Origin: Phlyctochytrium arcticum
Lineage: Eukaryota > Chytridiomycota > Chytridiomycetes > Chytridiales > Chytridiaceae
NCBI GenBank assembly: GCA_025602905.1
Contig: JAHLKI010000038.1
Location: forward strand, 155,887 to 219,886
Direction: 5' to 3'
Length of the DNA: 64,000 nt
The notes under the pieces were generated by a model. That model saw only the letters and a list, made by a program, of their open reading frames with translations, ran no database searches and had not been told where the DNA came from. Of this stretch, positions 48,797 through 54,799 are shown in pieces (positions within the stretch are counted from its first letter, which is position 1; each line of letters starts with the position of its first letter). Both the position numbers and the translations under genes were made by a program.

Positions 48797-51700
48797 ATGC
48801 GACCCGATGAGCTTACTACGTTGCCTACGAGTCCCAAACCCGAGGCTGAATCTCCATCAGTACTCACTACACCGGTAGCCCGACGGTTAGTTCGGGCAGA
48901 AACAAGCGGCCCACGAGTGAGAATCAGTCTTTGTCATTGACGTTATTTGGTAATGGGATTCTTATTCTTTTCAATGTAGCCGAAAAGTGCCCACTCCGAC
49001 TTTAGTTTGAATCGGCCGTTGTCCATGGTGGTAAGCCCTCATTACCGGCATAGAAAATATTTTCCCAGACCTGAGGTTGATTTTCCATTCTAGGATTCCC
49101 TTCGCCATGAACACAATGCTCCTCCAACAGCAGGACGTTCAACAGCATCTTCTACCGGGACAGTTGATGGTATGTCGAATTCGGACCTCGATGACTGCTC
49201 GTCGCCAGGCGGATCAATTTGGACCAGACTCAAGCGCAATGCACCATGGGCGAGCGGTTCCAAAAAAGATTTGCAATACAGCGCCGAAGACTTTCAATTA
49301 CAAAATGTAGAAGAGGGAAAATCAGCCTCGAGACCTACGAGTGGGAAAAAGCGAGGTAAGCGCCCTCGCTCGGCAACGTTTGGACAGCAGAGTGAACGTG
49401 TCTTGGGTACGGGATCAATATCACGGCAGCAACTTCAAACGGGGTCGAGCATGGCGGCTGTCGGAAATATGAGCGGGTTTGACTTGAGTAATGGGGGTAA
49501 AACCAGGCGATGGGGTGGAAGCACCAACCATTTGGGTGCAACGAACGCCTCTTCCATCTCGGATAGTATACCAGTACAGTTTCCACATGATGGGATAGGT
49601 ATGGAGGAAGAGGAAGAGAAAGATGACATTCGTGAGGAATTTGACGAAATCCGCAACATGCGGTTGGCTATCGACCAAGATGACGATGCGCAGACCAGCA
49701 ATCCCCTAGGAGGACCTCAAGATTATCTCCAAACCACAATGCAAGATCTCTTTGCTCGCGCCAACTTTATCCCACGCACACCTCCGCATCATTCCAACGT
49801 TTCATCCAATGCTCCATACAACCCTCGCCGGATCATGATCCCATCCATCACCTCGCTCAGCACTACCCCCGCCCCGACATTTCCCACCGGTCGAAGGATG
49901 AGTGATCGTGGGCAGCCTATGCGACGTGCGGAAGGGGAACGATCCTCTATGGGATCCGTCTCATACCACACCACATCTCGTCGAGCGAGTGTCATATCGC
50001 TTATGTCGGTGCAGGCGGGCATGACCCATGTGGGAGATACAATACGCGAGCACACAGAAAATCAAACTTTACAAACTGCAGCAAGTGCTGTTTCAGAGCC
50101 CTTACCAGAAGGTCATGCGTCGGGAGGGCCGGCCTCTAGTCGAGGGTGCTCACGCGAAGCTAGCGGCAGCGTACTGATGCTCGCGCAGTCGTCTACGCAA
50201 CCAGCTTCATGGTCCCCCAGTATAAGTTTGGCACAATCTGCCCAGATTGGGCTAGGAATGACGGACAGTGCTGCTGGTTCAGCTTCGGTCCAGTCCAGTG
50301 CGACAGGGCCGCGCTTGGGCACTTTTGCCCGTCGGGCAGACGTTCCAGAAGTCCTACCGGAACTGACGCATTCCGCGCACGACGGTACTATGCCGCAAAC
50401 CTGTCATCCACCAGTCATAGCAGATACCTCTGATGAGTCAGATACGCAATTGAATTTGACATATCCCCGTCATTCAGAGGCCATTTCCCGTGAGGCTCCC
50501 GCCATCCTCCCGCAAAGTCATTTCGCAACTGGAGCCCACCGCGAACGATCCTCATCCATCAAATCCGGCTCCGTCCACCGTGGATTAACCAGCGTCTTTG
50601 GCTCTCGCCATACCCCCGTCGTCCCACCCAGTGGCTTTGAACCCCCAGATTTGAGCGCATCCTCCCTCAACTTTGAAGGTGGCGTCATGCCCGCAAAGTA
50701 TGTAGCGCGGACGTCCGTGTTTTCAGGGTTTGGGTCTTCACCCAAGACTACATCACGCAGTAAAAAGCGGTCGGAGCCGGGTTCGACTACCGAGACCGAT
50801 GCCTCCGACACAGTCATCAAGCGGTATACTAGCGTCTGGGAATCGTTAATGCATCCGTTGAGCGTAAGTAACAAATGAAACCCTAAGTTTCTTATTTTAA
50901 CATTTGTTTCTGCTGTCCAGGAGAGTCCTGCGACGGGTTGGAATCTACGGTTCAAGGCTCCAGTCGAGAAACTGTATCGCGTCTGGCTGTTCCATCTGTG
51001 GGTCAAACCATTCCAGATGACAGTCTTTGCGCTGCTCATCATGTTTTGGATCATCTGGATTCCGATCGAATACTATGTCCTGACTCAACAACGACCTTTG
51101 GTCCATGCCGCAACCGCATCTGTCATTGTCACGGGTTTATTAGGCATGTGCCTGAGTCAGAGACGCAGTTGGGAGACGAGGTGGCCTTGGTTCATGCAAT
51201 TCTTCTTTGTATTGATGGCTCTGGCTACGCTGGCATTTTCGGCTTACTCACTGATAGACGGGCTGGATAATACCCTTGGAGACTTGAGGTAACCCCGCTA
51301 CTATCTTGTACCGGGATTCAGCATGTTGTTCTAATTCTGCGTTATTTACATTAACAGTAGTAGCAACCGTTTCATGTTCATCCAACTTTGTATATCAGCA
51401 TTCGGGCAGCTTCCTAGCGGCAACTACGTCCTTCTGATGTGGCTCTTCTTCTTTGGTCAAGTCGCTATTGAGGCCGTCATCTTCGGAAAGAATGGCAACA
51501 TACGGGCCCGACAACTGGTGGGAAATTGGCTCCTCTATTTTGCCGTCACAACGGTCGGAACCCATTTTCGGTACCGGGGGGAAGTCCTGCTCCGCAAAGC
51601 CTTTATAAAGTTTGTTGCCGGTCACTCTGGTCTTTATTCCAAACGTGAGTACTAAAACTGCTGTTCAGATACCGGATAGCATACCGAAACCAGGCCCGTC

Positions 51701-54700
51701 TCTTTGCTGCGCGAGAGCAGTCTGAATACCTCTTATCCATGATTTTGCCGGTCAAAGTCATTGAAACTTTACATAGTTTGCAAGGAAAAGTATCTGATCG
51801 CTTAATTTTGTCGACCCACGAAACATTTCTGGAGCTTCGCGGCGTGACTGTTTTATTTGCCGATATTGTCGGGTAAGATTTTTTTCGTAATACCTCCAGT
51901 TTCAGTGTTATTTTTTTTTGGCTCACCTTATGTTCCCAGATTTACAGAGTTCTCATCCTCCATCACTGCGGAACAACTGGTAAATGCTCCGGGTCTTGCA
52001 CAAATTTTGAATTTACGGAAATCTAAAAACATATTTTGCAGGTCGAAATCCTTTCTGAATTGTTTTCAGAATTCGATGCTATGGTAGCGGAGCTCGGCCT
52101 CGAAACGGTACGAAGAAATCTCACTAACCGCTCAACAAGTGAACCATGGTTCTAATAACACGGGTCGCTCAAAACAGATTAAGACCATTGGGGACTGTTT
52201 TCAGGTGGCAGGCGGAGTGCCCGAGCAACTTGTCTCCGAAGAACAAGTCCAAGAGGCCGCTGAACGCATTTGTACCTTGGCCCTCATTATGTTGACCGCC
52301 ACTCGGCGCCTGGACGAACATGTCAATGTCAACAAGCCGCTCCGATTGAGGATTGGGATACATACTGGAACGGTGATTGGTGGAGTGATGGGGCTGTGGA
52401 AATTCAAATACGGTATGTTACCGGATTGCCACTTTTGGGACAGAAAGACTGAAAGGATTATTTGAAGATATATGGTCGCGGGATGTAGATATTGCGTCTT
52501 TGCTTGAACAGTCTGGTCGGCCCAGTGTTCCCCACGTATCGGAAACAACTTATGCACTGCTTCGTGACCGCACAAATCTGACGTTCATGCCCGCAGCCGA
52601 CCTAACCGTCTTTGGTCGTGTCATGCACACGTATGAAATACTGGCGCTGGCCGAAGACAGTGACTCGTTGGAACGGCTGGCCGCCAAGCTCCGGATATCG
52701 GGAGACTATCCTTTAGGCTCGCCACGGAGTGGGTCGGCTGGGGGTTCCGGCGAAGCCGTCACGGCTGCCGCTGTTCGCCAAGCGTTTGGCACATCAAATG
52801 GAATGGTCGTGCCCGATGGCACTGTGCCGGGTACAACGACGCACAACATGCTTCCGCTAAGCACACATATGAACAATGGAGGCACTGGGACCAAGAAATT
52901 GAGCGGGAAGAGCACGATTGGAACTACGGTCAAAAAATTTCAAAAGAGCATTTACCGACTCTCAGGTATGGCCACGCACTGATAGTGGCAAGTGTGCGAC
53001 TCTAGTGTACTTACCAAGATTACCGTTAGCGGAGTTCAGGGACCCAGATATTGAGAAAGCCTATAGAGAGGATTATATGCGAACGTGGCCTGGGGCACTT
53101 ATCGTGGCGTCCATGACTGTTTTGCTGGCCTACCTGTGCTTATTCGGTGCCCACGTTGCGATCTTTGAAGCAACATCCCCGGCAATTATCATAATCGAAG
53201 GGATTTGCGGGCTCCTTCTCTTTGGGTTGATCATCTTTACCCATCACCTCAACAAGCCCTACCGGCTCAAAGTGACTCGAATAGTGGATAAAGGCGATCG
53301 GCTTGCTTCGGCTCTGTGGATCAATTCTGTCGAAGAACTCAGCAACAGTCGAAAATTGGGAGCTTCTTTCCCATCCATAAAAAAGGACAAGTGGTCCTGG
53401 TTCCGTCCCAACCTGTTTGCGATCCTGACGTTATTCTCTCTCTTCCTGTCGTGTTGCCTGCACCTGGGAACCATCGATTTGAACAGTATCGGCTATCACT
53501 CTGGTGGTATTCTCATACTCGCAATCGCCTCGGTCCTGTACCCTGGCATCAAAACCTACTACATCAATTTTGCTACCGTCGTGTTTACCATTACGTTTTT
53601 TGTCGCCCAGGTCTGCGCCATTTCACTCAAATACGAAAGCCCGGTCGCCCGATCTGTGATTCAAAAGCTGCTGCCGGATATATTCCAGCACATGTTCTTG
53701 TCGCTCATTGCTGTTTTGCGGGCTAATCGGAGTTATGATTACATTAGCCGGCTGAATTATTTTATCAAACGGCAAACCGAGCAAGACTATGCCGAGACGA
53801 AACGGACACAGGCAGCTGCCGAGCGCATGCTATTGAATATTCTCCCGCTACGGGTCGTGCAGCGACTAAAGGATAACCCGGGCGTACATATCGCGGATGA
53901 AGCCAATGTGGCCATCTTGTTTTGCTTCATTTCAAACTGTAAGCGGGATTTCATTTGCGGCAAATTTCTTTACTTTTCACATATTAATCTACCCTCCCAT
54001 CACCCAGTCAATACCAGCGATGAAATCACCGACATTGAGAATATATGGACGCTGAATGACATTATATGCGACATGGACGCGTTGGCCCGTTCCCGAAACG
54101 TAGAAAAGATCAAAACAATAGGTGTGTTGCCAACGCCCTTGTATCTCTGAGTTCCATATTGAACATTTTGGGGTGTATTAGGAACAAAGTACATGGCCAT
54201 AGCCGAGCCACAGCCGGATTGTGATGAGCATCCTGCGCAACGATTGACGGATTTTGCCCTTGATTTGCTGGACGTTGTTCGGGCGTTCAATGCACGAGCT
54301 GGACAAAGTTTTTCGGTGCGCATGGGCATTCATAGTACGTTCTATTTGAATCATCTGCACGTCCCGGCTCTCCTAACACTATTTTGTTCGTTTGCAGTGG
54401 GCCCAGCGGTTTGCGGGTTGATTGGCACACGAACGGTAGGTTGCATGGACTAAAACTTCAAATACACTAGCGGTCTCACTATAAAGTTTCTACCAGTTTG
54501 CGTATGATGTTTGGGGCGACACGGCCAATGTTGCATCACGGATGGAAACGACTGGGATGGACGAGCACATCCAAGTCACCCAAGCCGTCTATGACTTATT
54601 AAATGACCGCTACCTTTTCCGATCCCGCGGGAAGGTTTACGTGAAAGGAAAAGGTGAGATGGAGGGATACTTCGTGCTGGGACAACTGGATAAAGCCATG

Positions 54701-54799
54701 CGACGACCTGCCCTACGCCGGGTGTCGATGGCTAGGGATGATGGAATAACTTCTACGGTAGACCGGCGGAGTATTGTTCGATCGGTCTTGGAGGAGTAA
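48797..54799 (+). CDS. Twelve-span membrane adenylyl cyclase, animal-type C1/C2 architecture
   Basis: Predicted to make cAMP from ATP at a membrane. Exons: 48797-48916, 48980-49030, 49094-50863, 50921-51288, 51358-51609, 51669-51872, 51940-51979, 52042-52107, 52178-52412, 52468-52965, 53006-53938, 54008-54121, 54182-54334, 54398-54435, 54497-54799; 1,714 residues. A Ser-rich cytosolic tail (1 to about 675) precedes six spans (about 680-840), then a C1-like class III domain with both metal aspartates (Asp919 in FADIVGFTEF, Asp963 in KTIGDCF) and the C1-type IWSRDVDIAS. A low-complexity linker leads to six more spans (about 1,228-1,470) and a C2-like domain that lacks both aspartates (LFCFISNF, KTIGTKYM) but has the purine-site Lys1548 and Asp1618 and the C2-type Asn1625 and Arg1629 in NVASR. 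The intron joining the halves (52966-53005) is only 40 nt; if retained, the first half ends at 52982. The exon 5 donor is GTTTGT. Confidence 0.85.

What the first reader, a model, noticed from the sequence alone, without database searches (positions are those of the whole stretch)
48797..54799. Animal-type 12-span adenylyl cyclase in a fungal genome
Fungal adenylyl cyclases are usually Cyr1/Cac1-type, peripheral proteins with leucine-rich repeats and a single cyclase domain. Here two six-span blocks alternate with two class III domains in the order TM-C1-TM-C2, the layout of metazoan membrane cyclases. The long Ser-rich N-terminal tail (about 675 residues) is an added feature. I know of no well-described fungal example, though uncharacterised ones may be annotated in zoosporic genomes.
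Basis: partly seen in the sequence, partly recalled or inferred. Interest (0 to 1): 0.85.

Follow-up and report, generated by a model that had tools for sequence, protein, structure and literature searches.

The report
Animal-type membrane adenylyl cyclase in chytrids
A chytrid fungus carries a predicted cAMP-making membrane enzyme of the same build and ancestry as the animal ones, next to the usual fungal type, which suggests that chytrids kept a signalling enzyme that other fungi lost.

Summary
Confirmed. The window holds a 15-exon gene (48797-54799, +) for a 1706-aa protein; the model equals the NCBI protein of Phlyctochytrium arcticum letter for letter. Order: Ser-rich tail, membrane block, C1, membrane block, C2. 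Both metal aspartates lie in C1; the adenine-selecting and catalytic residues lie in C2, as in animal transmembrane adenylyl cyclases (tmACs). In trees, chytrid C1 groups with animal C1 (99/93) and C2 with animal C2 (100/97); independent duplication is rejected (AU p 0.010), though one very divergent sequence set lowers the C2 support to 79/40. A model of the Polychytrium ortholog matches human AC9 over 803 residues. Thirteen further chytrid species have orthologs; no hit was named as another fungus. The genome also has a Cyr1-type LRR-PP2C-cyclase. The family is known, the gene auto-annotated, and a 2010 paper placed Batrachochytrium cyclase domains with metazoa and amoebozoa. New, as far as I could search: architecture, residue-level division of labour, co-occurrence with Cyr1. 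Activity and regulation are inferred.

The parts
48797..54799 (+). whole CDS span of the membrane adenylyl cyclase, 15 exons, 1706 aa
   Evidence: spliced translation equals NCBI protein P0001
48797..51010 (+). Ser-rich N-terminal tail, residues 1-677 (exons 1-3 and start of exon 4); disorder is inferred, not computed
   Evidence: varies strongly among the 10 aligned orthologs
48980..49030 (+). 51-nt exon (17 aa) that my first model missed
   Evidence: present in the NCBI model P0001; flanked by AG and GT
51011..51568 (+). first membrane block (residues 678-840; one intron inside)
   Evidence: hydropathy gives 4 of 6 clear spans; six helices in ortholog model
51832..52637 (+). C1 cyclase domain (residues 909-1092) with both metal Asp (codons at 51862 and 52193)
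   Evidence: PF00211; residue table; tree; coordinates
52638..53094 (+). linker after C1 (residues 1093-1223) with FRDPDIEKAY, like AC5 FREPDLEKKY
   Evidence: alignment (that stretch alone scores -0.4 bits, not significant)
53095..53730 (+). second membrane block (residues 1224-1435)
   Evidence: hydropathy gives 6 of 6 spans; six helices in ortholog model
53896..54682 (+). C2 cyclase domain (residues 1491-1668) with adenine-selecting K and D (codons at 54112, 54506) and catalytic N, R, K (codons at 54527, 54539, 54644)
   Evidence: PF00211; residue table; tree

Best explanation
The gene encodes a membrane adenylyl cyclase orthologous, over its two-domain core, to the animal tmACs. It was most likely inherited vertically from a common ancestor of animals and fungi, kept in Chytridiomycota and lost in other fungi. 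C1 and C2 form one pseudo-heterodimer with a single active site. C1 supplies two Asp for two metal ions; C2 supplies Lys and Asp that select adenine, and Asn, Arg and Lys that stabilise the transition state. The second, pseudo-symmetric site has lost its catalytic residues and is free for regulation. Shown here: gene structure, domain order, residues, tree, predicted fold of an ortholog. Inferred: cAMP synthesis; membrane location; control by G-alpha and/or directly through the spans; PKA as downstream effector; vertical descent and losses.
Against: Pfam AC_N, the animal N-terminal membrane model, reaches only 19.8 bits against a cut-off of 30.9, so the membrane part is far diverged. C2 is 8 residues shorter than AC5 C2 around helix 2 (gaps), a region that in animals contacts Gs (recalled), so Gs-type control may not be conserved. 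Some bacterial PAS-type cyclases (P0016-P0023, of which P0017, P0018 and P0022 are named cyanobacterial) score higher with chytrid C2 (127-139 bits) than Limulus AC9 C2 does (107), and nearly as high with chytrid C1 (98-120 against 131); only the tree separates them. In the 64-row tree a one-domain bacterial cyclase, P0111, is the sister of the joint C2 clade (96/92). In the 72-row tree, with the divergent L010 domains and six further rows added, the support is 99/79 for C1 and 79/40 for C2. No sequence named as amoebozoan, choanoflagellate or other unicellular holozoan was in the trees, so the age of the shared ancestor is not fixed. The fold model rests on 16 sequences, 4 of them animal or animal-like, and AlphaFold2 was trained on AC9-like entries (recalled).
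Confidence: 0.87

Rival explanations
1. Independent tandem duplication: a one-domain bacterial-type membrane cyclase was acquired or inherited and doubled within chytrids, converging on the animal layout.
For: One-domain bacterial cyclases with 4-6 hydropathy peaks before the domain exist among the hits (P0096, P0104, P0111, P0177), and P0111 sits next to the C2 clade. Some bacterial domains score as high as animal ones. One paper lists an adenylate cyclase family of Batrachochytrium as a bacterial transfer (PMC5005798, passages seen); I could not tell which gene it means.
Against: Chytrid C1 and C2 as one clade rejected in three row sets, p 0.0102, 0.0056, 0.0021. The shared C1/C2 division of residues would have to arise twice.
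Confidence: 0.05
2. Horizontal transfer of a tmAC from an animal to an ancestral chytrid.
For: After the 14 chytrids, the next 26 of the 49 hits of the C1 search were tmACs (25 with animal names, 1 unnamed) and no hit was named as another fungus.
Against: Chytrid and animal clades have supports of 100/97 or better each, neither nests in the other, and the stems are long (0.64 and 0.66 for C1, 0.33 and 0.43 for C2). The chytrid branching roughly follows the orders as I recall them.
Confidence: 0.06
3. A guanylyl cyclase or a catalytically dead receptor, not an adenylyl cyclase.
For: Fungal zoospores use rhodopsin guanylyl cyclases for light orientation (PMC12264004, start of abstract, passages).
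Against: Adenine-type K and D in 10 of 10 C2 examined, against E and C in 7 of 7 receptor guanylyl cyclases; catalytic N, R, K in 10 of 10.
Confidence: 0.03
4. Two adjacent genes fused by annotation.
For: No transcript data were available to me. Some ortholog models are incomplete: P0007 lacks C2, P0010 lacks most of the second membrane block, P0009 part of C2.
Against: One open splice model; both domains in one chain in most ortholog models; C1 lacks catalytic N and R and C2 lacks the metal Asp, so each needs the other.
Confidence: 0.02

Closest known systems
Animal transmembrane adenylyl cyclases (AC1-AC9; AC5, AC8, AC9 structures)
   Same: TM-C1-TM-C2 order, C1 and C2 in the corresponding clades, metal Asp in C1, adenine and catalytic residues in C2, whole predicted fold (ortholog model)
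   Different: Pfam AC_N below its cut-off and no C1b (PF06327) match; C2 shorter by 8 residues around helix 2; 677-residue Ser-rich tail; membrane sequence far diverged
Fungal Cyr1/Cac1-type adenylyl cyclase (LRR-PP2C-cyclase)
   Same: Class III catalytic domain, cAMP pathway; one is present in the same genome at G000:C22 (L012)
   Different: Single cyclase domain with LRR and PP2C domains; neither of these in the window protein
Dictyostelium ACA (12-span adenylyl cyclase; recalled)
   Same: 12 spans and two cyclase domains, as recalled
   Different: Not compared; no sequence was fetched
One-domain bacterial membrane cyclases (Rv1625c/Cya type)
   Same: Membrane block followed by helical linker and class III domain
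   Different: One domain that works as a homodimer (recalled); chytrid domains are specialised halves
Two-domain cyclases with reversed order: P0015 (with P-type ATPase domains, like alveolate guanylyl cyclases as I recall them) and P0024, both without organism name
   Same: Two multi-span blocks and two cyclase domains
   Different: The C2-like domain comes first and the C1-like second by score; extra ATPase domains in P0015

Membership tests
Transmembrane adenylyl cyclase of the animal type (orthologous core, not a particular animal isoform) | Two class III cyclase domains in one chain | tested here: met
   PF00211, two stretches, 311.6 bits
Transmembrane adenylyl cyclase of the animal type (orthologous core, not a particular animal isoform) | Six spans before each domain | tested here: met
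Transmembrane adenylyl cyclase of the animal type (orthologous core, not a particular animal isoform) | C1 and C2 orthologous to animal C1 and C2 | tested here: met
   99/93 and 100/97; 99/79 and 79/40 in the 72-row tree with L010
Transmembrane adenylyl cyclase of the animal type (orthologous core, not a particular animal isoform) | Metal Asp pair in C1; adenine K/D and catalytic N/R/K in C2; degenerate second site | tested here: met
Transmembrane adenylyl cyclase of the animal type (orthologous core, not a particular animal isoform) | First membrane block recognisable by Pfam AC_N (an annotation mark rather than a strict criterion) | tested here: inconclusive
   E 4.9e-4 but 19.8 bits, under the curated cut-off of 30.9; covers residues 788-868 of the 14-exon model only
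Transmembrane adenylyl cyclase of the animal type (orthologous core, not a particular animal isoform) | Activation by Gs and forskolin | not testable with these tools
   Forskolin-site Ser is Thr in 9 of 10 chytrid C2, 1 gap; C2 helix-2 region shorter
Fungal Cyr1-type adenylyl cyclase | LRR and PP2C domains N-terminal to one cyclase domain | tested here: not met
   No LRR or PP2C match at E 0.001 in the window protein; they are in L012
Receptor guanylyl cyclase | Guanine-selecting E and C; clade with receptor GCs | tested here: not met
   K and D instead; clade rejected, p 3.0e-5 for C2 and 9.7e-4 for C1

The most novel reading that the evidence does not exclude
The last common ancestor of animals and fungi already had a specialised C1/C2 membrane adenylyl cyclase. 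Chytrids keep it beside a Cyr1-type enzyme, so the reliance of Dikarya on Cyr1 alone came by loss, not by replacement at the fungal root. In this genome a second membrane cyclase (L010) with the roles of the two domains swapped suggests that cyclases of either domain order were once present in fungi.
Probability: 0.4. Interest if true: 0.75.

Novelty: new member of a known kind. Interest (0 to 1): 0.6.

Why it matters
Textbook fungal cAMP signalling rests on the peripheral Cyr1 enzyme. A conserved animal-type tmAC in chytrids, in a genome that also has a Cyr1-type gene, G-alpha genes and a PKA regulatory subunit, makes the origin of animal-type membrane cAMP signalling and the timing of its loss in fungi directly testable, for instance in Spizellomyces punctatus, for which transformation is published (PMC7213984, title and start of abstract seen).

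Tried and rejected
Ten paper searches (open-licence PMC only) showed me no paper describing a 12-span chytrid adenylyl cyclase. I saw listings only, several of them capped (25 of 372 papers, 20 of 56, 20 of 330, 15 of 42, 12 of 24), and opened 7 papers. The nearest is PMC2939053 (passages, section 6 whole; supplements not seen). PMC10406608 and PMC3251606 hold no word 'cyclase' in the main text; PMC12716839 holds no 'adenylyl cyclase' or 'adenylate cyclase' in the main text. PMC2781859 (passages) was about phototaxis; PMC12264004 and PMC5005798 were seen by passages.

PF08509 (G-alpha-binding domain of Cyr1) gave no hit in the genome, but the control rang nowhere, so this says nothing. Rfam on the window: nothing at gathering scores. 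The second protein search listed the best 120 of 331 hits, mostly bacterial, and Limulus AC9, itself in the query alignment, was not among them; absence of other fungi there means little. The third search scored all of its 1462 candidates, which must share exact words with the query and be 0.55-1.75 times its length. The two neighbouring open frames tested gave no family over its cut-off, so the neighbourhood stays unidentified.

Rows of the tree: 41 of the 194 proteins then held were picked, plus 4 own-genome frames and 7 typed domains. Dropped before building: own L009 (truncated), own L013c (weak match), C2 of P0004 and P0006 (poor C2 stretches); P0007 has no C2, and the C2 of P0086 lies in two pieces under my length limit. 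Own L011, L012 and L014 were never placed; L010 only in the 72-row tree. L010, P0015 and P0024 were left out of the 66-row tree.

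Full report
Host and gene. The window is part of contig C38 (219886 bases) of a 31.5 Mb genome. The best database match is a 1706-aa NCBI protein of Phlyctochytrium arcticum on a contig of the same length; the species is in Fungi, Chytridiomycota. Reading splice sites by eye I built 14 exons. Comparison with the NCBI model showed one further 51-nt exon. The corrected 15-exon model gives the NCBI protein letter for letter; all 14 introns begin with GT and end with AG and are 55-70 nt long. No transcript data were seen.

Division of labour. 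In C1, metal Asp1 is present in 13 of 14 chytrids (the exception, P0008, looks like a mis-spliced model) and Asp2 in 14 of 14. In the 10 C2 examined neither is present (1 gap), while the adenine-selecting Lys and Asp and the catalytic Asn, Arg and Lys are present in 10 of 10. C1 lacks the catalytic Asn and Arg in 14 of 14. The animal set (7 C1, 9 C2) shows the same asymmetry, except that one animal C1 has Asn; 7 of 7 receptor guanylyl cyclases carry Glu and Cys at the adenine positions. Residue names and roles are recalled. Thus the predicted enzyme has one active site at the C1/C2 interface and one degenerate site.

Ancestry. Reciprocal scores pair C1 with animal C1 and C2 with animal C2. Some bacterial domains score nearly as high (C1) or higher (C2) than animal ones, so a tree was needed. 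In a 64-row tree (186 columns, LG+C20) chytrid and animal C1 form one clade (99/93), chytrid and animal C2 another (100/97); each chytrid and animal group is itself a starred clade, and a bacterial one-domain cyclase, P0111, is next to the C2 clade (96/92). Holding chytrid C1 and C2 together costs 47 log units (AU p 0.0102). Adding AC6, insect AC2, one alga, one more guanylyl cyclase and the two L010 domains keeps both clades but lowers support to 99/79 and 79/40; leaving out L010 and the reversed-order rows gives 100/94 and 100/97. So the common ancestor of the animal and chytrid enzymes most likely already had specialised C1 and C2. Whether that ancestor is the opisthokont ancestor or older cannot be told without amoebozoan and unicellular holozoan sequences.

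Distribution. Three protein searches found the gene in 14 chytrid species: P. arcticum, Spizellomyces, Thoreauomyces, two Geranomyces, Fimicolochytrium, Powellomyces, Borealophlyctis, two Batrachochytrium, Polyrhizophydium, Nowakowskiella, Polychytrium and Clydaea. Some models are incomplete (P0007, P0009, P0010, P0086). In one search, 49 of 1462 scored candidates passed: 14 chytrids (294-564 bits), 26 tmACs of which 25 have animal names and 1 none (135-163 bits), and 9 others (39-83 bits). No hit was named as another fungus, within the word- and length-based limits of that tool.

Context in the genome. Among 19 PF00211 pieces, L012 carries LRR and PP2C domains and, in an adjoining frame, a cyclase domain, that is the Cyr1 type. 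PMC2939053 stated in 2010 that LRR-type cyclases are in all fungi studied except the chytrid Batrachochytrium and a microsporidian, that every cyclase-domain protein of its ascomycota, basidiomycota and zygomycota has LRRs, and that the six Batrachochytrium cyclase proteins group with metazoa and amoebozoa (section 6). The genome also has G-alpha pieces at four or more loci; the one compared is nearest to Gi/o. It has a PKA-regulatory-subunit-like gene (236.7 bits to PKA RII). S. punctatus is reported to have 8 rhodopsin-family GPCR sequences (PMC3251606, passage). A receptor to G-alpha to tmAC to PKA chain is therefore possible but wholly inferred. Against simple Gs control, C2 is 8 residues shorter than AC5 C2 around helix 2.

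Verdict. The finding is a new member of a known kind, already auto-annotated as a cyclase, with a partial precedent in print. What seems not to have been described, as far as ten searches of open-licence papers and seven opened papers show, is the 12-span chytrid family itself, its C1/C2 orthology with animal tmACs and its co-occurrence with a Cyr1-type gene.

Noticed in passing
L010 (G000:C4:779500-788000), positions 302 to about 5120, + strand: A second, very divergent gene with membrane block, cyclase domain, membrane block, cyclase domain (15-exon model, at least 1331 aa). The first domain has the adenine-type K (E at the Asp place), the catalytic N, R and K and one of two metal Asp; the second has both metal Asp and lacks N and R, i.e. 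roles reversed against animal tmACs. Hydropathy: 3 clear spans in block 1, 6 in block 2. Its first domain falls beside the C2 clade at only 87/89; its second with the C1 clade is not rejected, p 0.29.
   Followed up: partly
[quoted passage not shown]
   Followed up: partly
L013 (G000:C20:332500-342400): Three cyclase frames within 10 kb, two on - and one on + strand, with long charged, coiled-coil-looking N-terminal parts; the two placed in the tree group with receptor guanylyl cyclases, 100/96.
   Followed up: partly
L009 (G000:C16:36500-44500) and L011 (G000:C5:925000-932000): An FHA-GAF-cyclase gene, and a cyclase gene whose long first frame (1292 aa) has no Pfam match.
   Followed up: no
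G000:C1:1518771-1519487 and G000:C13:347494-348210: Two cyclase loci with nearly the same match scores on two contigs, perhaps a recent duplication or an assembly duplicate; the one looked at has a PAS match just below its cut-off.
   Followed up: no
window 49721-49759 and 50639-50683: Short conserved stretches in the otherwise variable tail (DYLQTTMQDLFAR and EPPDLSASSLNFEGG), recognisable in 7 of 10 aligned orthologs (P0001-P0007); possible docking sites.
   Followed up: no
whole genome: NCBI places P. arcticum in Chytridiales, but this gene's domains group it with Spizellomyces; I recall that the species was moved to Triparticalcar in Spizellomycetales.
   Followed up: no
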